Source: Actinophytocola algeriensis
GTDB taxonomy: Bacteria > Actinomycetota > Actinomycetes > Mycobacteriales > Pseudonocardiaceae
DNA length: 64,000 nt
Direction: 5' to 3'
NCBI RefSeq assembly: GCF_014203735.1
Contig: NZ_JACHJQ010000010.1
Coordinates: forward strand, 310,001 to 374,000
Shown here: piece after piece, positions 12,348 to 62,527 of the stretch
Position numbering within the stretch: the first letter of the stretch is position 1
Layout of the letters: each line of letters opens with the position of its first letter
Made by a program: the position numbers and the translations under genes
The notes under the pieces: model-generated
Databases searched by the model: none
Seen by the model: the letters and a program-made list of their open reading frames with translations, nothing else
Told to the model about the DNA's origin: nothing

Positions 12348-12442
12348 TGGCGGAGGCGAACGGGAATCGAACCCGCCAACGACAGGACCTGCCGTTCACC
12401 GGTGTTGAAGACCGGGCCGGTCACCAGACCGGATGCGCCTCC
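12348..12442 (-). tRNA. selC: tRNA-Sec (anticodon UCA), CCA encoded
   Basis: Read on the minus strand, the 95-nt gene begins GGAGGCGC and ends CGCCTCC-G-CCA. It has a six-pair D stem (CCGGTC/GACCGG with a 4-nt loop). The anticodon arm is CCGGT-CTTCAAC-ACCGG with anticodon TCA. A long paired variable arm (AACGGCAGG...CCTGTCGTT) and a normal T arm (GGGTTCGATTCCC) complete it. The long D stem, long variable arm and UCA anticodon are diagnostic of selenocysteine tRNA. Acceptor pair 8 looks mismatched (C opposite T). It sits directly upstream of selA. Confidence 0.95.
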
Positions 12443-53151: not shown

Positions 53152-53202
53152 CAGGTCAGCCTCACCGATCCGCGGGCTCCGGGCAAGGACTTGGAACCTG
53201 AA

Positions 53203-53221
53203 TTGAGAACGATTATCGTCA
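53203..53221 (+). promoter_or_regulatory. Zur/Fur-like box over the methyltransferase promoter
   Basis: TTGAGAACGATTATCGTCA contains the perfect palindrome ACGAT-T-ATCGT and fits the actinobacterial Zur-box shape (TGAAAATCATTTTCA-like). It ends 5 bases before the ATG, and its TATCGT resembles a -10 box six to seven bases before the start codon. Repressor binding would block a leaderless promoter. A near copy lies at 56853. Confidence 0.65.
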
Positions 53222-53226
53222 CGCTT

Positions 53227-54006
53227 ATGACGACTTCCGCGTTCGACGCCGCCGCGGCCGACTTCACGGCACTCGGCGAGTACCTGTGGGGCCCCATCGG
53301 CGTCGCGACCGTGGCCGCCGCCGGGCTCCGCCCCGGCGAGCGGGTCCTCGACGCCTGCTGCGGCACCGGTGCGTCGGCGATCCCGGCGGCCGAGGCGGTC
53401 GGCGCCGACGGCCTGGTGGACGCGGTCGACCTGTCGGGCCCGATGGTCGACGAGCTGCGCGGGCTGTCGGCCGGGCTGCCACAGCTGCGGGCGCACCAGG
53501 CCGACGTGACCACGTGGGACACCGGCGGCTACGACGTGGTGCAGTCCGCGCTCGGCATCTTCTTCTTCCCCGACATGACGGCAGGCACCGAGCACCTCAT
53601 CAGCCGCGCGGGCCGGGTCGTGTTCACCATCTGGCGCGGCGACGCGATGGCGGCCGCCGGGCGGCACCTCGGGCTGGCGGTGGCCGCGGCGACCGGCACC
53701 GCACCGCCCAAGGAACGCGAGCGGTCCCTGTTCGACCGGATCAACCAGCCCGGCACGTACGCCGCCTGGCTCACCGAGCGCGGCCTGACCGAGGTGGCGG
53801 TCACGACGCACGACATGCGCCTCACCATGACCCCGGAGGTGGCGTGGCTGGTGGTCACCGGCTCCGGTTACCGCGGCGCGCTCGCCAAGCTCGACCCCGG
53901 CACCGTCGACACCGTGCGGGAGCACTACCTCGCTTCCCTCCGCGCCGACGGCGTCACCGAACTCGACGCCACGACCCTGATCGGCACCGGCACCACCGCG
54001 ACCTGA
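53227..54006 (+). CDS. Class I SAM-dependent methyltransferase
   Basis: This 259-aa protein has the SAM-binding motif I RVLDACCGTGASAIP at residues 39-53, an acidic motif II end (VDAVDLSGPMVDEL) and YDVVQSALGIFFFPDMTAGT as motif IV/post-motif region, like UbiE/COQ5-type methyltransferases. ATG 53227 sits directly after a Zur-like box, with no ribosome site, so translation is probably leaderless. It converges with the PLP-enzyme gene with no gap (stops at 54006/54007). It likely modifies the small molecule made by the adjacent operon; this is context inference. Confidence 0.85.
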   Translation: MTTSAFDAAAADFTALGEYLWGPIGVATVAAAGLRPGERVLDACCGTGASAIPAAEAVGADGLVDAVDLSGPMVDELRGLSAGLPQLRAHQADVTTWDTGGYDVVQSALGIFFFPDMTAGTEHLISRAGRVVFTIWRGDAMAAAGRHLGLAVAAATGTAPPKERERSLFDRINQPGTYAAWLTERGLTEVAVTTHDMRLTMTPEVAWLVVTGSGYRGALAKLDPGTVDTVREHYLASLRADGVTELDATTLIGTGTTAT

Positions 54007-55005
54007 CTACGGGGCGTCTCCTCGTCCCCAGTCCATGCGCGACCACGGCAGCGCCAGTTCCTCCACAGCGGACACCCGGGTCGGCGTGAGTGCCGCGATC
54101 GGCGGGGCTTCCTCGTGGCGGGCGAAGACCGTGCCCGCGTAGCGGTGGCCCGTGTCGGCGGCGATGAACAGTGTCGTGCGGTGCGGGGCGCGTTCCCAGC
54201 GGGCGGCCAGGTACGCGGCACCGGTGGACAGGCCCGCGAACACCGCGTGCTCCCGCAGCAGGTCGACGCTCCCGGCGAGGGCGGCGGTGAAACCCACCCA
54301 GTGGATGGTGTCGTACAGCGTGTGGGCGACGTTGTCGAACGGGATCGAGCTGCCGATGCCCGCGATGATGATGTCCGGGTCGGACACGTGCTGGCTGCCG
54401 AACGTGACGCTGCCGAAGGGCTGCACCCCGGCCAGCGCCACGTCCGGCACCCGACCGCGCAGGTACGTGGCGAGTGCGCCGGTGGACGCGCCGGACCCGA
54501 CCCCGCCGACGACGGTCAGCGGACCGTCGCCGAGTTCGTCGGCGATCCGGTCCGCCACGGCCCGGTAGCCGAGGTAGTGGATGTCGTCGTGGTACTGGCG
54601 CATCCAGTGGTAGCGGGGGTGGTCGCGGAGGATCTCCTCGATGCGTTCGACCCGGCGGCTCTGGTCGAGTTTCAGGCTCGTGGACGGCGCCATCTGCTCC
54701 AGGTGCGCGCCGAGCACCGCGAGCTGTGCCCGCAGCGTGTCGTCCACCGTGGTGGAGCCGACGATGTGGCAGCGCATGCCGTACCGGTGGCAGGCGAGCG
54801 CGAGCGCGTAGGCGTAGATGCCGCTGGAGGAGTCCAGCAGGGTGTCGCCGGGACGGACCGCGCCGGTGTCGAGCAGGTGCCGGACGGCGGCCATCGCGGA
54901 GACCACCTTCATGGATTCAAAACGCAGGCAGACGAGCCCACCGTCCTGATCGTCGAGGTGTACGAGGTCCGGTCTGCTGATCGCGTCGGCGATGTGGCTG
55001 TCCAT
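54007..55005 (-). CDS. Cysteine-synthase-like (fold type II) PLP enzyme
   Basis: This 332-aa protein carries the PLP lysine as K33 in RFESMKVVSAMAA. LLDSSSGIYAYALALACHRY is the Asn/Ser loop, and GVGSGASTGALATYL at 168-182 is the phosphate-binding glycine loop. Family enzymes replace a beta leaving group of Ser/Thr derivatives; SbnA, for example, uses O-phosphoserine to build 2,3-diaminopropionate for a siderophore. With a GHMP kinase next to it, a phospho-amino acid substrate is plausible. ATG 55005 lies 89 bp inside the kinase gene. Last gene of the leftward operon. Confidence 0.85.
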   Translation of the reverse strand: MDSHIADAISRPDLVHLDDQDGGLVCLRFESMKVVSAMAAVRHLLDTGAVRPGDTLLDSSSGIYAYALALACHRYGMRCHIVGSTTVDDTLRAQLAVLGAHLEQMAPSTSLKLDQSRRVERIEEILRDHPRYHWMRQYHDDIHYLGYRAVADRIADELGDGPLTVVGGVGSGASTGALATYLRGRVPDVALAGVQPFGSVTFGSQHVSDPDIIIAGIGSSIPFDNVAHTLYDTIHWVGFTAALAGSVDLLREHAVFAGLSTGAAYLAARWERAPHRTTLFIAADTGHRYAGTVFARHEEAPPIAALTPTRVSAVEELALPWSRMDWGRGDAP

Positions 55006-55918
55006 GTCCGCCTTCCGGTCGGCCGGTGCTGAAGATCCGGGCTACGGGGATGTTCCTGCTGCCCAGTGCGCGCACGCAGTGCCACAGGCGCCGGTCGAGG
55101 TCGTCCGCGGCCGGGTCGAACAGCAGGCCTGCGACGTTCCCGCTGTGCGCGACCTGCACCCCGGCCGACCCGGTCCCTCGGGCGACGGCCTCCAGTCCGG
55201 TGAGCTCCTCCTTGGGCAGCACGCGCTGGTTGTGCCGGGCGCTCTCGGTGCTGACCTGGCCGAGCAGGGCGAGATCGGTGTCGGCGATCGCCTGCCGCAG
55301 GACGACGCGGAGCCGTTCGTAGGACCGCACCTCGTCGTCGTGGCAGGCGGGCAACCCCAACGTGTTCACCGGCCGTCCGCCACCGGTCAGGCAGCTGACG
55401 ACGACCAGGGGCGGCAGCGCCTCCCCGAGGTCCTCCAGGACGCGGCCTTCCCGGTGCGCGAACAACAGTGGCCGGTCCGCGAGCATGATCGGGTCGCTGG
55501 CGTCCTCGGCCGCCACGGCGAGGCGGGCCAGCGCTCCGGGTGGCAGGTCGACCCCGTAGCTCGCCGCGACCGCGCGGACAGTGGCGATGACGTCCCCTGT
55601 GGACGATCCCATGCCCAGTCCCAGCGGGATGTCGCTGTCGAGCCGCAGCTGTCCGCCGCACCTGGGCAGGCCGGTCCGGCCTGCGCACTCCGCGATCGTG
55701 AGCGACGCGGCGCGGGCGGCCTTCACCCGGTCCGCCGGATGCACGACGACCTGGTCACCGGGCCGGGGCGTGAACTCGGCGCGCACCCCCGGCCCTGGCA
55801 TCGGCAGGGTGACCAGCCCGCGGCACGGCCGTCCTGACGCGTCCAGGAAGACGCCCTGCAGGATCTCACCGTGGTGACCGGAAGCCTGGCCGTTGCCAGC
55901 ATTCATGCCGCCGTTCAC
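54917..55918 (-). CDS. GHMP-family kinase (threonine/serine kinase-like)
   Basis: This 333-aa protein has the GHMP ATP loop at residues 98-109 in PLGLGMGSSTGDV. GHHGEILQGVF near 14-24 and AGVQVAHSGNVAGLLF near the C-terminus match the PduX-like L-threonine kinase branch. It probably phosphorylates a small hydroxy compound such as Ser or Thr. GTG 55918 overlaps the previous stop (GTGA). The frame runs 89 bp into the PLP-enzyme gene, giving a basic tail (PHRRRDQQTGPRTPRRSGRW), an unusually long overlap. It may prime the substrate for the PLP enzyme. Confidence 0.8.
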   Translation of the reverse strand: MNGGMNAGNGQASGHHGEILQGVFLDASGRPCRGLVTLPMPGPGVRAEFTPRPGDQVVVHPADRVKAARAASLTIAECAGRTGLPRCGGQLRLDSDIPLGLGMGSSTGDVIATVRAVAASYGVDLPPGALARLAVAAEDASDPIMLADRPLLFAHREGRVLEDLGEALPPLVVVSCLTGGGRPVNTLGLPACHDDEVRSYERLRVVLRQAIADTDLALLGQVSTESARHNQRVLPKEELTGLEAVARGTGSAGVQVAHSGNVAGLLFDPAADDLDRRLWHCVRALGSRNIPVARIFSTGRPEGGHGQPHRRRDQQTGPRTPRRSGRWARLPAF

Positions 55919-56706
55919 GCCGCCGCCGCGCGGTAGCGGTGGAGCAGCGTGGGTTCGGCGCTGAACTGGGAGAACGGGAAGGGTTCGGCGGACAGCGCGG
56001 TCACCCCGGCGCCGAGGAACGCACGCGCGACCGCGCTCCCGCTCTGCGCGTACACGACCAGCGGCACATCCCGTTCCCGGCACCGGTGGACGATCTGGTC
56101 GAACGTGCCGTTGCCCAGCGTCATGCCGGTGGCCACCACGGCGTCGGCGGTACCGAGCACCTCGGTCATGGTCTGTGCCACGGCGTCGCCCCACTGCGTC
56201 GCGCGGAGGTTGAAGTCGCAGGGCAGGCAGACGCCGCCGCGCTCACGGATGGCGGCCACCAGCGGGTTCACGACACCGATGAGCGCGACCTTCGCGCCCG
56301 GCGCGATGTCGAGCAGGTCGGCGATGGCGGCGTCCCGTGCGCGGGCCCGCTCCTCGGGGGTGCCCGCGGGCAGCTCCACCGCTTCCCCGTGGTGGGGCCG
56401 GGTCGCGGCGAGGTAGGCGTCCAGCGCGGCGATCCGCAGCGGCAGCGGACCGGTACGCAACAGGTCGTCGAGGGTACCGCCGGACGCGTCGCGGCAGATG
56501 TCCGGGTCGATCTCGCCTGCCTCGAACGCACAGGCGCCGAACGACCGTCCACATCGGACCAGGACGTACTGGTTGCGGTACGTGGTGTTCCCGCCCGCGA
56601 GCCTGGTGCCGTGGTGCAGCCAGAACACGCTGGTCGCGACCAGTTCCGCGGGCGAGGTGCCGTGTTCGCCCGCGCGGACACTGGCGATGAGGTCGTCGAC
56701 GGTCAC
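55915..56706 (-). CDS. DUF364/DUF4213-like protein (Rossmann-like, metal/chelatase-type)
   Basis: This 263-aa protein's second half carries the DUF364 signature: VALIGVVNPLVAAIRERGGV, VVATGMTLGNGTFDQIVHRC and VVYAQSGSAVARAFLGAGVT. The N-terminal half resembles the enolase-N-like DUF4213 part (RLAGGNTTYRNQYVLVRCGR). Families of this type occur near metal-uptake and metallophore genes; their reaction is unknown. The GTG start overlaps the stop of a 33-aa ORF and the stop overlaps the kinase start, so all are translationally coupled. Confidence 0.78.
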   Translation of the reverse strand: MTVDDLIASVRAGEHGTSPAELVATSVFWLHHGTRLAGGNTTYRNQYVLVRCGRSFGACAFEAGEIDPDICRDASGGTLDDLLRTGPLPLRIAALDAYLAATRPHHGEAVELPAGTPEERARARDAAIADLLDIAPGAKVALIGVVNPLVAAIRERGGVCLPCDFNLRATQWGDAVAQTMTEVLGTADAVVATGMTLGNGTFDQIVHRCRERDVPLVVYAQSGSAVARAFLGAGVTALSAEPFPFSQFSAEPTLLHRYRAAAA

Positions 56707-56804
56707 CCGGCACCGCCGCCACGCGGGTCGGCCTTCGGCGTGCCGAGCGCGATGATCCGCTCGGCACGCGACGACGGGGGCGGCTGGTCGGTCAGCAGGT
56801 CCAC
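56703..56804 (-). CDS. 33-aa first ORF of the metallophore-type operon
   Basis: GTG 56804 has GGAAGG eight bases upstream and encodes 33 residues (MDLLTDQPPPSSRAERIIAL, then a Gly-rich end). Its TGA overlaps the GTG of the DUF364-like gene. It is soluble, without Cys or His, so it is unlikely to sense zinc by itself. It may be a translational-coupling leader or a small partner protein. Confidence 0.5.
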   Translation of the reverse strand: MDLLTDQPPPSSRAERIIALGTPKADPRGGGAG

Positions 56805-56852
56805 AGAGGACACCTTCCGGAGGCAGGGGTCAGACGCACACCATGCTACAAA

Positions 56853-56869
56853 TGAAAACCATTATCGTC
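56853..56869. promoter_or_regulatory. Zur/Fur-like box in the divergent metallophore promoter
   Basis: TGAAAACCATTATCGTC matches actinobacterial Zur boxes (TGAAAATCATTTTCA) at most positions, and shares ATTATCGTC with the box at 53203. It lies between the leftward operon and the MFS gene. On the plus strand TAGAGT follows, six bases before the MFS ATG (leaderless promoter). On the minus strand TAGCAT (about 56844-56849) is a -10 candidate. One repressor could close both directions. Confidence 0.7.
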
Positions 56870-56881
56870 TAGAGTGCGTTC

Positions 56882-58132
56882 ATGACCAACGCCGAGACAA
56901 CAACCCACCACACCCGTCGCACCCCGCGACGATCGGTCCTGCTCGAACCGGGGTTCGCCCGCCTGTGGCTGGGCACGACGGCGTCGGGGCTGGCGACGTG
57001 GTCGCTGCCCTTCGTGCTGGGACTCGCGGTGCTCACCCGCGAACTGAGCGCGGCGGGCCTCGGTGTGGTGCTGGCGGCTCGGACCGCCGGTTTCCTGCTG
57101 GCGGTGCCGGTCAGCGGGGTGCTCGCCGACCGCCACTCGCGCCGCGCCGTGGTGCTGTGGGCCGGGCTGGCGGCGGCGGCAGGCGCGCCGGTGATCGCGT
57201 TCGGGCTCGACCGGTCGGTACCGCTGATGGCGGTCGCCGCGCTGATGGTCGGCGCCGGCCAGGGCGCCTGCAGGCCAGCGTTCCAGGCGCTCGTCGCCGA
57301 GGTGGTCGAGCCGGCGCGCAGGCAGACCGCCAACGCCGCCATGGCGTTGTCGGTGCGGGTCATCACGCTCACCGCGCCCGCGCTGACGGCGTTGCTCGCC
57401 ACGGTCCTCAGCACGTCCGCGCTCCTGGTGGGCACCGGCGTGGTCTGGCTGTTCGCCGCGCTGGTACCACCGAGGGGCAGGCACACGGCACCCACCGACG
57501 CACGGTCCTTCTCCTTCGTCCGCGAGTTCGCCGACGGGGTGCGGGAGGCGCGACGGCACCCGTGGTTCCTCGCCGGGCTGTGCGCACTCACGGCCGTGAT
57601 CGCGACCGGCTACTCCGCCACCGCCGTGGTGCTCCCGCTCGTGAGCCGCGACCGCTACGACACCGAGGCGGTACTCGCCGCCGCGCTGACCGCGTACACG
57701 GCAGGCGCACTGCTCGGCGCGCTCGTGGTCGCCCGGTGGCGGCCGAGGGCGCAGGGGTGGGCCGCGCTCGCCGCACTCGCCTGCTACGGGTTCGCGCCGC
57801 TCGCGTTGCTGTTCCCCGTGCACTGGGTGGTGGTCGTCGCCGCGTACGTCGTCGCCGGACTGGGCATCGAACTGTTCAACGTGCCCTGGTTCACCGCCAC
57901 CCAGCGCGAGGTCGCCCCGGACAAGCTCGCACGGGTGTCGTCATTGGACTTCCTGCTGTCGTACGGCCTCGCCCCGCTCGGGCTCGCACTCATCGCGCCA
58001 GCCATCGACGCTTTCGGGGTCACCGCTGTGCTGGGCGTGTGTGCGGCGGCGTGCTTCGTGGTTCCCGTCGCCGCGATGTTCGCTCCTACGACTCGTGAGT
58101 TCGGTAGGCGTGAGGACCGTGTTTCCGGCTGA
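56882..58132 (+). CDS. MFS exporter next to the metallophore-type operon
   Basis: This 416-aa protein has twelve hydrophobic helices; VSGVLADRHSRRAVVLWAGL is the MFS motif A and VGAGQGACRPAFQALVAEVV follows. The type resembles small-molecule/siderophore exporters (the EntS-like DHA3 group). ATG 56882 comes six bases after a -10-like TAGAGT and 13 after a Zur-like box, with no ribosome site, so a leaderless transcript repressed by metal is likely. It may export the product of the divergent operon. Confidence 0.87.
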   Translation: MTNAETTTHHTRRTPRRSVLLEPGFARLWLGTTASGLATWSLPFVLGLAVLTRELSAAGLGVVLAARTAGFLLAVPVSGVLADRHSRRAVVLWAGLAAAAGAPVIAFGLDRSVPLMAVAALMVGAGQGACRPAFQALVAEVVEPARRQTANAAMALSVRVITLTAPALTALLATVLSTSALLVGTGVVWLFAALVPPRGRHTAPTDARSFSFVREFADGVREARRHPWFLAGLCALTAVIATGYSATAVVLPLVSRDRYDTEAVLAAALTAYTAGALLGALVVARWRPRAQGWAALAALACYGFAPLALLFPVHWVVVVAAYVVAGLGIELFNVPWFTATQREVAPDKLARVSSLDFLLSYGLAPLGLALIAPAIDAFGVTAVLGVCAAACFVVPVAAMFAPTTREFGRREDRVSG

Positions 58133-58180
58133 GTGATGTCTCGTAATCGACCTTGTCGTTGTCAGTGCGAGTTCTGGAGG

Positions 58181-58774
58181 TCAATGCCAGTCCAGCATCT
58201 GGTCCTCCACCACCACGGCTCTCACCCCGTCGATCTCGACACCGTGTTCGAGGGCGTCGGCTATGTCGCTGAGCATCACAGAGATGCTGGGCCACAGAGG
58301 TTCGAACTCGGCCGCTTCGACTTTGTCCCACCGCATGACGCATCCGCTCAACGGACCAGAGCGCACATCGACGAACAAGTCGCCCCCGCCGCCATCGCCC
58401 GCAACGGGTAGCCAGACGGGCAGCCACCCGGAGACCGGCGTACCCGCAGGTTCGTCAACCAACGCGGCGATGTCGTGTTCGGACACGCCCTCCACCCACG
58501 TCTCCAGCAAGGACTCGCGCGTGTCGATGACGCGATCGATGTCATACGGCACGTAGTTGGGCGGTATCAGGATGCCGCCGACATGGTTCGTCACCCCACA
58601 CGACATCCGCCACCACGCGACCAGATCCGACGGCAACGGCCGGTTCAACAACGCGGAGACCAACTCCAGATCCGTGCGCTTCACGGGTGGTCGTAGACAT
58701 GCGGCCGTGCCAGGGGCATGAACACTCAGCCAGGAAACAACCTGACGCCATGCGGATTCGGCATCATTCAGCAC
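58181..58774 (-). CDS. SMI1/KNR4-like (SUKH superfamily) protein
   Basis: This 197-aa protein has the N-terminal pattern RTDLELVSALLNRPLPSDLV then WWRMSCGVTNHVGGILIPPN, typical of SUKH-fold proteins (a small helix-loop before a Gly-rich turn). WLPVAGDGGGGDLFVDVRSG is the second signature. SUKH proteins often act as immunity proteins to polymorphic toxins. No toxin is next to it here, so it may be an orphan. GTG 58774 is the start. It converges on the MFS gene with a 48-bp gap. Confidence 0.82.
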   Translation of the reverse strand: MLNDAESAWRQVVSWLSVHAPGTAACLRPPVKRTDLELVSALLNRPLPSDLVAWWRMSCGVTNHVGGILIPPNYVPYDIDRVIDTRESLLETWVEGVSEHDIAALVDEPAGTPVSGWLPVWLPVAGDGGGGDLFVDVRSGPLSGCVMRWDKVEAAEFEPLWPSISVMLSDIADALEHGVEIDGVRAVVVEDQMLDWH

Positions 58775-58920
58775 TCAAGCATCATGCCATGCCCGGCCCG
58801 GCCTGGACCGGACGACGGTCCACGATCTCCTCACCACCACCGTACGGAAATGATCGGCAGATCCGGCCCGACACCGGGTTACGAGGCATCCCTTTTGGCA
58901 GGGACTCTTTTCGGTGGGCT

Positions 58921-58973
58921 GCCTGCCATCCCGTCGACCTCACTTCGCCAGGTCGACGGGATGGCAGGCAGTC
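58921..58973. repeat. Perfect 22-bp inverted repeat
   Basis: CTGCCTGCCATCCCGTCGAC + CT, a 9-nt loop, then the exact reverse complement. It is a long stable stem between the SUKH gene start and the 3' end of the ABC binding-protein gene. It may terminate the leftward ABC operon (about 60 bp past its stop). The first 14 bases recur at 38037, so it belongs to a dispersed element. Nothing else was found in the 256-bp gap. Confidence 0.75.
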
Positions 58974-59030
58974 TTGGGGGTGGTGTGTGTGGCGGCTTTC
59001 CTCGGTCCGGCCTGGGTGGAACAGCGCTGA

Positions 59031-59994
59031 CTAGCTCGGCAGGGTCCGTAGGTACTCGGCGAAGCCTTCCAGGCCGTCCACGTTGCGGGGGCCGCTGATG
59101 CCCTCGTTGTAGTCGAGGGTGTAGAAGCGGTTGTTCACCACCGCGGGGAGGGACGCGGTGGTGGGTGAGGTCTTCAGGAAGTCGATCTTCTCCTGGGCGG
59201 GCTGGTCGCCGTAGTCGAGGATGATGATCACCTCCGGCTTGGCCTGTACGACCGGTTCCCAGCCGACCTGGGTCCAGCGCTGGTCGAGGTCGGCGAAGAT
59301 GTTGCGGCCGCCCGCGAACTCGATGATCTCGTTCGGTGGCACCTGGTTGCCCGCGGTGAACGGCTGGTCGGTGCCCGAGTCGTACAGGAACACCGGCACC
59401 GGGTCGCCCTGGGGCGCTTCGCTTCGCACCTTCTCGACGCGGTCCTTCAGGTCCGCCACGACGTCCTTCGCACGGGACTCGACGTCGAAGATCCGGCCCA
59501 TCCGCTCCAGGTCCGTGTAGAGGGCCTCGAACGGGGTGACCTTCTCCGGGTGGTTCGGGTAGTTGTAGCAGGACTCCGTGTGCATGAAGCTCTGGATGCC
59601 GAGCCCGTCCAGGATCTCCGGGGTGATGCCGCGCTCGTCGGAGAACCCGGAACGCCAGCCCGCGACCACGAAGTCGGCCTTCGCCTCGACGACGAGTTCC
59701 TTGTTGAGCAGGTCGTCGCCAAGGAACTCGACCTTCGCGTACTCGGCCGCCCACGGCGACTCCTCGACGGGCGGGTTCGCGGGTGGCATCACGTAACCGT
59801 GCACGTGGTCGGTCAGGCCGAGTGCGAACATCTTGTCCGCGCTGCCGCCTTCGTACACCACCGCCCGCTGGGGCGTGGTGTACTCGACCTCCTCGCCGCA
59901 CCGGGACACGGTGACGGTCCGCGTGCCGGGGTTCTCGGCGACCTGCGCACCGCAGGCCGCGAGCGGGATCGTGGCCACGACGAGCGCGGCGAGT

Positions 59995-60011
<17 letters not shown>
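59031..60011 (-). CDS. ABC importer substrate-binding lipoprotein (siderophore/metallophore/B12 class)
   Basis: This 326-aa protein has a lipobox ending in Cys20 (TIPLAAC), so it is anchored outside the membrane. The fold is that of class III periplasmic binding proteins: RAVVYEGGSADKMFALGLTD early, then KADFVVAGWRSGFSDERGIT, and NIFADLDQRWTQVGWEPVVQ with KPEVIIILDYGD in the second lobe. It binds a metal chelate or corrinoid. ATG 60011 has GGAAAG upstream and lies 17 bp inside the ATPase gene. Third gene of the uptake operon. Confidence 0.9.
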
Positions 60012-60795
<784 letters not shown>

Positions 60796-60796
60796 G

Positions 60797-61870
60797 TCAG
60801 CGCCCTCCGAACAGGTAGCCGCGGCGCCGCATCAGGACGACGAACACCGGTACACCCACCAGTGCCGTGATCGCGCCAAGGGGCAGCTCGCGCGGCGCGA
60901 CCACGGTCCGCGACACCAGGTCCACCCACACCATGAGCACCGCACCCACGAGCGGCGCGACGACCAGCACCCGCGCGTGCCCCGCGCCGACCAGGATCCG
61001 CACCACGTGCGGCACCACCAGCCCGACGAAGCCGATCGCGCCGCTCACCGCGACCATCGCGCCGGTCGCCACCGCCGTCAGCACGAACAGTCCCCTTCGG
61101 ACCACCGCGGCGTCGACACCGAGGCTGCCCGCCGTCTCGTCACCGAGCGACAGCACGTCCAGCGCCCGGCTGTACCGGCGCACCACCGCGAGCGCGACCA
61201 GCACCACCACGGCGACGACCGGCAGCGCGCCCCACGTCGCGGCACCGAACCCGCCCATCGTCCAGAACAGCACGGCGCTCGTCGCCTCGCTGTCCGGCGC
61301 GAAGTAGATGATCACGCTCAGCACGGCCTGGAACCCGAACGCCATCGCGACCCCGGTCAGCACCAGCCGCAACGGCATGATCCCCGCCGCGGAGCGGGAC
61401 GCCACGTACACCAGCGCGGAGGCGCCCAGCGCACCGGCGAACGCGCCCGCCGACACCGCGTAGATCCCCAGTCCCGCCAGCCCGCCGGAGACGCCGACCG
61501 CGACCGCGCCCACCGAGGCACCCGACGACACGCCGAGGATGAACGGGTCCGCCAGGGCGTTCCGCACCAGCGCCTGCACCACGACGCCGACCGCCGCGAG
61601 CCCGGCGCCGACGACCGCGGCCAGCAGCACCCTGGGCGTCCGGATCTGCCAGACGATCTGGTAGCGGGTCACCTCGTCCGGCCCGATCTCCCCGCCCGAC
61701 ACCGCGGCCCACAGGTACCGCACGGTCTCCACCGGCGCGATCACCGCGGGCCCCAGCCCGATCGCCACCAGCACGGAGGCGAGCAGAACGACGGACAGGG
61801 CGATCGCGAGCGCCCGCACCGAGCCGCCGACCCGGCGTCGACCGGCAAGCCATCTGGAATTGATTGTCAT
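60797..61870 (-). CDS. ABC importer permease (FecCD/BtuC class)
   Basis: This 357-aa protein has about nine to ten helices with family motifs: WQIRTPRVLLAAVVGAGLAA, ALVRNALADPFILGVSSGAS and GFVGLVVPHVVRILVG (the coupling region). It is a homodimer-type permease since no second permease gene is present. ATG 61870 (not the longer frame to 61984) is chosen because TACAGT lies eight bases upstream as a -10 box and the family start (about 15 residues before the first helix) fits. The transcript seems leaderless, with a Zur-like box over the start. Confidence 0.92.
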   Translation of the reverse strand: MTINSRWLAGRRRVGGSVRALAIALSVVLLASVLVAIGLGPAVIAPVETVRYLWAAVSGGEIGPDEVTRYQIVWQIRTPRVLLAAVVGAGLAAVGVVVQALVRNALADPFILGVSSGASVGAVAVGVSGGLAGLGIYAVSAGAFAGALGASALVYVASRSAAGIMPLRLVLTGVAMAFGFQAVLSVIIYFAPDSEATSAVLFWTMGGFGAATWGALPVVAVVVLVALAVVRRYSRALDVLSLGDETAGSLGVDAAVVRRGLFVLTAVATGAMVAVSGAIGFVGLVVPHVVRILVGAGHARVLVVAPLVGAVLMVWVDLVSRTVVAPRELPLGAITALVGVPVFVVLMRRRGYLFGGR

Positions 61871-61875
61871 TGTCA
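61855..61875 (-). promoter_or_regulatory. Weaker Zur/Fur-like box over the ABC operon start
   Basis: On the minus strand the sequence is TTGACAATGACAATCAATTC, with TGACAATGACAATCA matching the TGA-AAT-A-TCA frame of Zur boxes, but its half-sites are only partly symmetric. It overlaps the ATG at 61870 and follows the -10-like TACAGT. Binding here would block a leaderless promoter. Confidence 0.5.
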
Positions 61876-62025: not shown

Positions 62026-62527
62026 CGATGGCCGCCGCGGTCGGCCTTGCCCGCGGCACCGGCGACTACGAGGTGCCGCGGAAGGTCTTCCTCGACTTCG
62101 GCGGCGCCACGGTCGACCTGGCGGAGTTCGCGATCGAACCGAACCCCGGTGTCCGCACGCTGAGCCCGTTCCCGACGTTCCTCGGTGAGTGGTGCCTGAC
62201 GGCCGGGGACGAGCCCGCCGTGGTCCGCCGGATCGTGCGGACCGCGCGCGAGAACCTCGCCGAGAACGTCGCGGAGCACAGGAACAACCCCGGCCACCCG
62301 GCTGGCCGTCCTCAACTCCGCTGATCCACCAGGACGTCTTCGGCGGGCAGAACGTCGGCCGGGTCGTCATCGGTGGCACGACGAAGGAGGCGGGGTTCGC
62401 GACGGTCGACATCTCCGGGTCCATCGACCCGGAGATGTCGACCACGAGGAGTACGCGCTGGTGCTGCGGGACTTCCTGGCGCAGCCCGCGGGCCCTTCGG
62501 TGTCGCTCAACACCCAGGAGTCAGTAG
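62026..62527 (+). pseudogene. Frameshifted remnant of an exported protein gene
   Basis: Three frames carry successive, clearly related protein pieces. First GDYEVPRKVFLDFGGATVDL up to about 62310 (…AVLNSAD in the adjacent frame), then HQDVFGGQNVGRVVIGGTTK and EAGFATVDISGSIDPEMST to about 62440, then EEYALVLRDFLAQPAG to about 62527. At least two indels are needed to join them. The N-terminal region lacks a normal signal peptide. The pieces read like a secreted actinomycete hypothetical protein. It is probably dead unless sequencing errors explain the shifts. Confidence 0.6.

What the first reader, a model, noticed from the sequence alone, without database searches (positions are those of the whole stretch)
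53203..61875. Candidate metal-repressed metallophore (zincophore-like) synthesis, export and uptake locus
The sequence shows two close Zur/Fur-like boxes and one weaker box in front of every outward transcript. The genes encode a methyltransferase; a 33-aa ORF, DUF364-like protein, GHMP kinase and cysteine-synthase-like PLP enzyme in one operon; a divergent MFS exporter; and a complete FecCD/BtuC-class ABC importer. Known families: SbnA-type PLP enzymes make diaminopropionate from phosphoserine for staphyloferrin B, and Amycolatopsis makes the zinc chelator EDDS under Zur control. A kinase that makes a phospho-amino acid followed by a PLP beta-replacement enzyme would be a coherent route. There is no NRPS, no NIS synthetase and no SbnB-like partner, so the product, if any, would be a small new or little-studied chelator.
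Basis: partly seen in the sequence, partly recalled or inferred. Interest (0 to 1): 0.82.

Follow-up and report, generated by a model that had tools for sequence, protein, structure and literature searches.

The report
Zinc-starvation chelator gene cluster (probable)
These genes look like a soil-bacterium kit, probably switched on when zinc is scarce, for making, exporting and re-importing a small metal-grabbing molecule by a chemistry that has not been worked out.

Summary
The window has a DUF364–GHMP kinase–SbnA-like PLP operon, a divergent MFS exporter and a complete FecCD-type importer, with three Zur-type boxes (30.7, 23.1, 20.2 bits; no null site ≥18 in 1.92 Mb). The same box stands at canonical zinc genes of this genome. 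In 80 named relatives: kinase 79, DUF364 77, MFS 71, binding protein 71. A published Zur consensus gives 56 sites in 107 kb of their cluster promoters, 9 in 1.40 Mb elsewhere.

Corrections: the '33-aa ORF' is a remnant of a methyltransferase gene found in 36 of 80 relatives. The methyltransferase at 53227 is only an occasional neighbour. Of three SbnA residues reported to select phosphoserine, two are present.

Unexpected: 51 of 199 Streptomyces genomes hold a second DUF364 type. Of these I read 23 loci: all pair DUF364 with a PLP enzyme, ATP-grasp ligase and MFS, 22 with a box. A rare variant without DUF364 has a cobalamin riboswitch in 2 of 5 loci.

Best reading: a Zur-repressed zincophore pathway with DUF364 and an SbnA-like enzyme as core. 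Product, reactions and zinc response are untested.

The parts
53201..53221 (.). Zur-type box AATTGAGAACGATTATCGTCA, ends 5 bp before the methyltransferase start
   Evidence: 23.1 bits; 1 mismatch to TGANAANNNTTNTCA
53227..54006 (+). class I SAM methyltransferase (Methyltransf_25), 259 aa; occasional neighbour, itself preceded by a Zur-type box in several relatives
54007..55005 (-). SbnA-like fold-type II PLP enzyme, 332 aa; K33, R118, Q137, Y138 correspond to SbnA K47, R132, Q151, Y152; SbnA S185 is G170
   Evidence: literature residues PMC12414870
54917..55906 (-). GHMP kinase, HHGE(I/L)xQG and PLGLGMGSST motifs; predicted amino-acid kinase (inference); its 3' end overlaps the PLP gene
55915..56706 (-). 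DUF364 protein, 263 aa, enolase-N-like plus Rossmann-like domains
56707..56813 (-). remnant of the N-terminus of the C6 methyltransferase gene found in 36 of 80 relatives
56850..56870 (.). main Zur-type box AAATGAAAACCATTATCGTCT, between exporter and biosynthetic operon
   Evidence: 30.7 bits; conserved in two sister genomes
56882..58132 (+). MFS exporter, 416 aa (export inferred)
   Evidence: 60-77% identical copy in 71 of 80 relatives
59031..60011 (-). periplasmic-binding-protein-2 family binding protein
59995..60795 (-). FecE/BtuD-type ABC ATPase
60797..61870 (-). FecCD/BtuC permease (start uncertain)
61852..61872 (.). weaker Zur-type box in front of the importer (20.2 bits; a second register at 61858, 15.8 bits)

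Best explanation
A zinc-starvation metallophore (zincophore-like) locus under the repressor Zur. With zinc present, Zn-Zur sits on the boxes and blocks the exporter, the biosynthetic operon and the importer (control inferred from sequence). In zinc shortage the GHMP kinase phosphorylates an amino acid, most likely L-serine (inferred); the SbnA-like enzyme eliminates the phosphate and adds an amine nucleophile such as an amino acid, giving an aminopolycarboxylate (inferred from fold, residues and pairing); DUF364 condenses or finishes the molecule (inferred); in other species a methyltransferase (C6) may also act, but its gene is lost here. The MFS protein exports the chelator and the FecCD-type importer takes up the metal complex (inferred from family and shared boxes). 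Shown: gene set, conservation, boxes, and the same box at canonical zinc genes of the genome. Not shown: any reaction, the product, the metal bound, a zinc response.
For: Own-genome regulon: the box stands between a CobW-like gene followed by L31 and an L28/L33/S14/S18 operon (30.5 bits), and beside an ABC-3 metal importer (30.7 bits). Non-circular test: published consensus (PMC5472717, passages) with <=1 mismatch, 56 sites in 106,762 bp of cluster promoters (reversed control 0) against 9 in 1.40 Mb elsewhere (control 1); 40 of 79 loci. Matrix score >=22 in a cluster promoter in 71 of 79 loci; 6 of the 8 misses are cut or short contigs. Gene set: kinase 79, DUF364 77, MFS 71, SBP 71, permease 71 of 80. 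In N. flavescens S14, L28, S18 and CobW genes lie inside the cluster; in a Kitasatospora an ABC-3 permease with its own box is next door; in one Nocardiopsis a FUR-family gene is near. Kinase-PLP pairing in 19 of 21 regions. Arg132 and Tyr152 of SbnA are matched; the four cysteine synthases printed have Phe at the Tyr position (the one cystathionine beta-synthase printed has Tyr).
Against: No expression or metabolite data. SbnA Ser185 is Gly here, and the PLP substrate loop SSSGIYA departs from SSSGNLG. By the strict published pattern 39 of 79 loci have no promoter site. The importer proteins score below the cut-offs of all NCBIfam models listed; the best name is 'putative F420-0'. Genome G013 has enzymes and importer but no exporter in the region and no box >=18 (L250); type-2 locus L210 has no box. 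In sister G066 DUF364 and PLP match only as fragments. Two distantly related importer types serve the same enzymes (32 and 37 of 79 loci, 10 with none in reach), so the ligand could differ. DUF364 of either type is in only 6 of 396 phylum-wide genomes, 3 of them of the window's type, its own genome included.
Confidence: 0.72

Rival explanations
1. It is a member of the EDDS (aes) or another already described aminopolycarboxylate pathway under a different annotation, so the chemistry is known.
For: EDDS is a Zur-controlled metallophore of Amycolatopsis (PMC6103462, passages) and this cluster occurs in four Amycolatopsis species among the 80 loci. An SbnA-like step would fit both (inference).
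Against: Not settled: I could not obtain aes sequences. In 19 genomes of one Amycolatopsis group, 3 of the 30 SbnA-family loci returned had a site >=17 bits, none within 1.4 kb of the PLP gene; that group may lack EDDS producers. The ten literature searches listed no paper on a DUF364/GHMP kinase metallophore cluster.
Confidence: 0.13
2. A cobalamin- or cobalt-related pathway: a PduX/BluE-type threonine kinase with a PLP partner and a BtuCDF-like importer that in some lineages came under Zur.
For: Importer scores near BtuC/BtuF and F420-0 models. A variant with 62-66% identical PLP, about 30% identical kinase and, in three loci, a related importer has a cobalamin riboswitch (42.5 and 35.3 bits, gathering 31.5) in L151 and L152.
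Against: Only 2 of 5 variant loci have it, both in one genus; no DUF364 was found in the five, and ATP-grasp genes follow the PLP gene in four. The eight neighbour families found in 13 or more of the 80 loci hold no cobalamin gene (by eye). The boxes tie the main cluster to zinc. A riboswitch would also suit a cobalt metallophore.
Confidence: 0.08
3. Zur-regulated metabolism that is not a secreted chelator: a zinc-sparing intracellular metabolite or cofactor with its own transporters.
For: Zur regulons include functions other than uptake, such as alternative ribosomal proteins and COG0523 proteins (PMC6103462, passages). No product is known.
Against: An exporter and an importer in most loci, with boxes in cluster promoters, fit secretion and recapture better.
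Confidence: 0.07

Closest known systems
Staphyloferrin B precursor route SbnI/SbnA/SbnB
   Same: Serine kinase plus PLP beta-replacement enzyme supplying a chelator precursor; SbnI makes O-phosphoserine within the pathway (PMC12414870, passages); K47, R132, Q151, Y152 equivalents present.
   Different: Kinase is GHMP, while SbnI is of another family (recalled); SbnA model 122.6 bits against cut-off 349.95; no SbnB-like or NIS gene among the window proteins scanned; DUF364 added; Zur-type boxes, where staphyloferrin B is under Fur.
[S,S]-EDDS (aes) zincophore of Amycolatopsis japonicum
   Same: Zur-controlled small metallophore (PMC6103462, passages); lack of NRPS is recalled.
Opine-type zincophores (CntM/nicotianamine-synthase-like)
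   Same: Small zincophores; of 24 actinobacterial CntM clusters 14 have FecCD importers and 10 have both types (PMC7438024, passages).
   Different: No CntM-like gene among the ten window proteins scanned.
DUF364 structures 3l5o (Dhaf4260) and 3npg (PH1506)
   Same: Same two-domain fold over residues 1-260; the 2010 paper proposed a condensation or hydrolysis role in chelator synthesis near metal transporters (PMC2954201, two sections read).
   Different: 14-16% identity in the structural alignment; those proteins have no assigned function.
Coelibactin cluster of S. coelicolor
   Same: Zur-controlled candidate zincophore in Streptomyces (PMC6103462, PMC5472717, passages).
   Different: NRPS-based (recalled); none here.

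Membership tests
Zur regulon (Actinobacteria) | 7-1-7 palindrome tGaNNatSatNNtCa / taaTGaNAANNNTTNtCANta | tested here: met
   consensus from PMC5472717. Two window boxes have 1 mismatch; the third is weaker.
Zur regulon (Actinobacteria) | Same box at canonical zinc genes of the same genome | tested here: met
   CobW/L31 and L28-L33-S14-S18 operons and beside an ABC-3 importer
Zur regulon (Actinobacteria) | Zinc-dependent repression | not testable with these tools
   needs RNA and a zur mutant
SbnA (TIGR03945 equivalog) | Score over curated cut-off | tested here: not met
   122.6 bits, cut-off 349.95
SbnA-like phosphoserine chemistry | Lys47, Arg132, Tyr152, Ser185 equivalents | tested here: inconclusive
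   Three present and invariant in 26 sequences, Ser185 is Gly170
Staphyloferrin B pathway | SbnB-like and NIS synthetase partners | tested here: not met
   None among the ten window proteins scanned; none recognised by eye in the eight neighbour families found in 13 or more of 80 loci
DUF364 (PF04016) | Pfam gathering score and fold | tested here: met
Opine metallophore clusters | CntM/nicotianamine-synthase-like gene | tested here: not met
   none among the ten window proteins scanned
F420-0 ABC transporter (TIGR03868/03869/03873) | Scores over curated cut-offs | tested here: not met
   175/392, 257/437, 279/372 bits
EDDS (aes) cluster | Homology to aesA-H | not testable with these tools
   no aes sequence obtained; searches found no substitute
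Cobalamin L-threonine kinase PduX/BluE | Sequence or activity match | not tested
   no PduX-named NCBIfam model was listed; similarity of the HHGELLQG motif is recalled

The most novel reading that the evidence does not exclude
DUF364 plus an SbnA-like PLP enzyme is the core of an undescribed class of actinobacterial metallophore biosynthesis, free of NRPS, NIS and opine enzymes. It exists in at least two Zur-controlled forms, one with a GHMP kinase (as here) and one with an ATP-grasp ligase and an epimerase-like enzyme. A rare relative that has kinase and PLP but no DUF364 is in one genus under a cobalamin riboswitch, perhaps to fetch cobalt: one biosynthetic chassis re-aimed at different metals.
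Probability: 0.4. Interest if true: 0.88.

Novelty: new variant of a known kind. Interest (0 to 1): 0.72.

Why it matters
Zinc chelators of actinomycetes are known from few cases (recalled). A scan of a one-genome-per-species collection found 402 stretches coding for a relative of the PLP enzyme, of which only the best 80 were returned, and DUF364 of either type is in 83 of 199 Streptomyces genomes. If real, the product would be a common soil zincophore that mining by NRPS, NIS or CntM genes would miss. It would also give DUF364, whose 2010 structure paper could only guess a role, a testable reaction; a genome with both cluster types (G569) allows a direct comparison.

Tried and rejected
Rejected: the 33-aa ORF as a peptide precursor. 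The 53-kb methyltransferase as a core gene (0 of 80 named loci); kept as optional, since it flanks the cluster in G021 and G059 (one genus) with a 19.8-bit box, and since a box of 19 bits or more lies within about 300 bp upstream of its start in 10 of the 24 loci scanned, the window included (L217, L218, L223, L230, L232, L233, L235, L236, L239, L240; counted from positions; in L235 the match begins at residue 70 and the start is extrapolated). The kinase alone as a marker: 44-52% identical copies in L133, L136, L137, L138 and L249 showed no DUF364 match; some sit in clusters that look NRPS-like by eye, and in L136 an ASL-type lyase and an ATP-grasp ligase were confirmed.

Led nowhere: EDDS comparison; DtxR and Nur boxes in L150-L152 (best DtxR site 7 mismatches of 19; one 1-mismatch Nur-like site in L152); naming the window organism (not attempted). 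The fold list compared only chains that Foldseek already ranked; residues 1-95 are covered by few rows besides the two DUF364 entries. Ten literature searches used; their listings showed no paper on this cluster, but the library holds open-licence papers only and Spohn 2016 (EDDS) was not read. Papers opened: passages of PMC6103462, PMC5472717, PMC10320115, PMC10486106, PMC10920908, PMC12161575, PMC12414870, PMC7438024; abstract and two sections of PMC2954201.

Rows dropped: L089, the other end of the contig that gave L088, was left out (79 loci; 75 of at least 11 kb) but counted (80). The 402 PLP relatives were cut to 80 by the tool. Matches under 60 bits were ignored. Weaker kinase regions: 20 fetched plus L130, from a longer list (small contigs, near-duplicates and the weakest rows skipped). 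Type-2 loci read: 23 of 51 genomes. Own-genome box places examined: 5 of 26.
Full report
What is there. The window is positions 310001-374000 of contig 10 of a 9.73-Mb genome. Between 53.2 and 61.9 kb lie a methyltransferase gene, a minus-strand operon of DUF364, GHMP kinase and an SbnA-like PLP enzyme, a divergent MFS exporter, a SUKH gene, and a complete importer (Peripla_BP_2, ABC_tran, FecCD). Kinase and PLP genes overlap, and DUF364 ends about 9 bases before the kinase, so one transcript is likely (inference from sequence).

Are the boxes real. A palindromic weight matrix from 75 relatives converged on a TAATGAAAATGATTTTCATTA-like motif. It scores the window sites 30.7, 23.1 and 20.2; 30 Markov copies of the window reached 16.9 at most. 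The matrix was trained on these loci, so I repeated the test with the published actinobacterial Zur consensus (PMC5472717, passages read): in 79 loci, 56 sites with at most one mismatch in 106,762 bp of cluster promoters and none for the reversed control, against 9 in 1.40 Mb elsewhere, control 1. By that strict pattern 40 of 79 loci qualify; by the matrix at 22 bits 71 of 79, with 96 sites inside and 7 outside cluster promoters. Three of the 7 outside sites stand at verified zinc genes: two registers before a CobW gene with S18, L28 and S14 in L091, and one before an ABC-3 permease in L073. In the window's own genome the same box lies between a CobW-like gene followed by L31 and an operon of L28, L33, S14 and S18 paralogs, and beside an ABC-3 importer; in that second case it sits upstream of a secreted-protein-like gene without Pfam match that follows the permease and ATPase. 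Such genes are classical Zur targets (PMC6103462, passages). A further perfect match (C5:490804) had no gene I could link to zinc.

Is the gene set conserved. A collection scan with the PLP alignment found 402 related stretches, of which the best 80 were returned, from Streptomyces, Nocardiopsis, Amycolatopsis, Prauserella, Actinopolyspora and others. Within 10 kb: kinase 79, DUF364 77, MFS 71, binding protein 71, permease 71; the window's methyltransferase and SUKH gene 0. Clustering of called neighbour genes gave one further widespread family, C6, a methyltransferase upstream of DUF364 with weak MTS/HemK-type matches below cut-offs; it is found in 36 of 80 loci. No match to it was found in the window's genome. 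The short ORF upstream of DUF364 aligns with its first 30 or so residues at a score no shuffle reached (0 of 300), so the gene was most likely lost here and left a stub; in the two sister genomes the box is kept and the stub is not seen. Two distantly related importers serve the same enzymes: type I, as here, in 32 of 79 loci, type II in 37, none in reach in 10.

A second Zur family. DUF364 of this kind is found in 6 of 396 genomes sampled across the phylum and in 83 of 199 Streptomyces genomes: 33 of the window's type, 51 of a second type, one genome with both (counted from its table). Of the second type I read 23 loci: all 23 have matches to an ATP-grasp ligase, DUF364, a PLP enzyme and an MFS exporter in a row, 22 to a methyltransferase, and 22 have a box of at least 18 bits about 53-106 bp before the ligase match. 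The ligase carries an L-amino-acid-ligase C-terminal domain in the three scanned. An epimerase-like enolase-superfamily ORF sits between PLP and MFS in the two loci looked at, one of them scanned. So DUF364 and a PLP enzyme are the shared core of two clusters with Zur-type boxes.

A variant under another switch. Five of 297 genomes of the family (0 of 396 across the phylum) have a kinase close to L151's at E<=1e-30. In their five regions (L151, L152, L256, L257, L258) the PLP enzyme is 62-66% identical to the window's, no DUF364 match and no promoter box were found, and importer genes are present in three. Two of the five, both in one genus, carry a cobalamin riboswitch before the permease. 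This may mean a cobalt chelator, or it may support the cobalamin rival.

Judgement. That this is a zinc-starvation locus is very likely (about 0.9, from sequence only). That it makes, exports and recovers a chelator is the best reading (0.72). The chemistry is inference. I file it as a new variant of a known kind, Zur-controlled small metallophore clusters, because the product is unknown and the EDDS genes could not be compared. The searches of open papers listed no description of it, which does not exclude one elsewhere.

Noticed in passing
L151:5359-5480 and L152:13330-13449: Cobalamin riboswitches in front of a related importer-kinase-PLP-ATP-grasp cluster without a DUF364 match; absent from the other three variant loci.
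   Followed up: partly
L189-L191, L197-L216: Streptomyces cluster of ATP-grasp ligase, DUF364, PLP enzyme, MFS and methyltransferase, with a Zur-type box in 22 of 23 loci.
   Followed up: partly
L128 (G066): In a sister genome DUF364 and the PLP gene match only as fragments, so the cluster may be decaying there or the assembly is faulty.
   Followed up: no
window 12352-12442, minus: Selenocysteine tRNA, 79 bits.
   Followed up: no
window 62405-62442: Near-perfect inverted repeat (GTCGACATCTCCGGGTCCATCGACCCGGAGATGTCGAC) seen while reading upstream of the importer.
   Followed up: no
window 58181-58774, minus: SUKH/SMI1-KNR4 gene between exporter and importer; not found in the 80 relatives' loci.
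   Followed up: no
L088/L089: Both ends of one Amycolatopsis palatopharyngis contig carry the cluster at equal identity in opposite orientation, perhaps a terminal repeat or assembly copy.
   Followed up: no
window 59031-61870 and L151:5419-8635: These importers score best against models named 'putative F420-0 ABC transporter', a hypothetical name; the link to zinc-box clusters may bear on that annotation.
   Followed up: no
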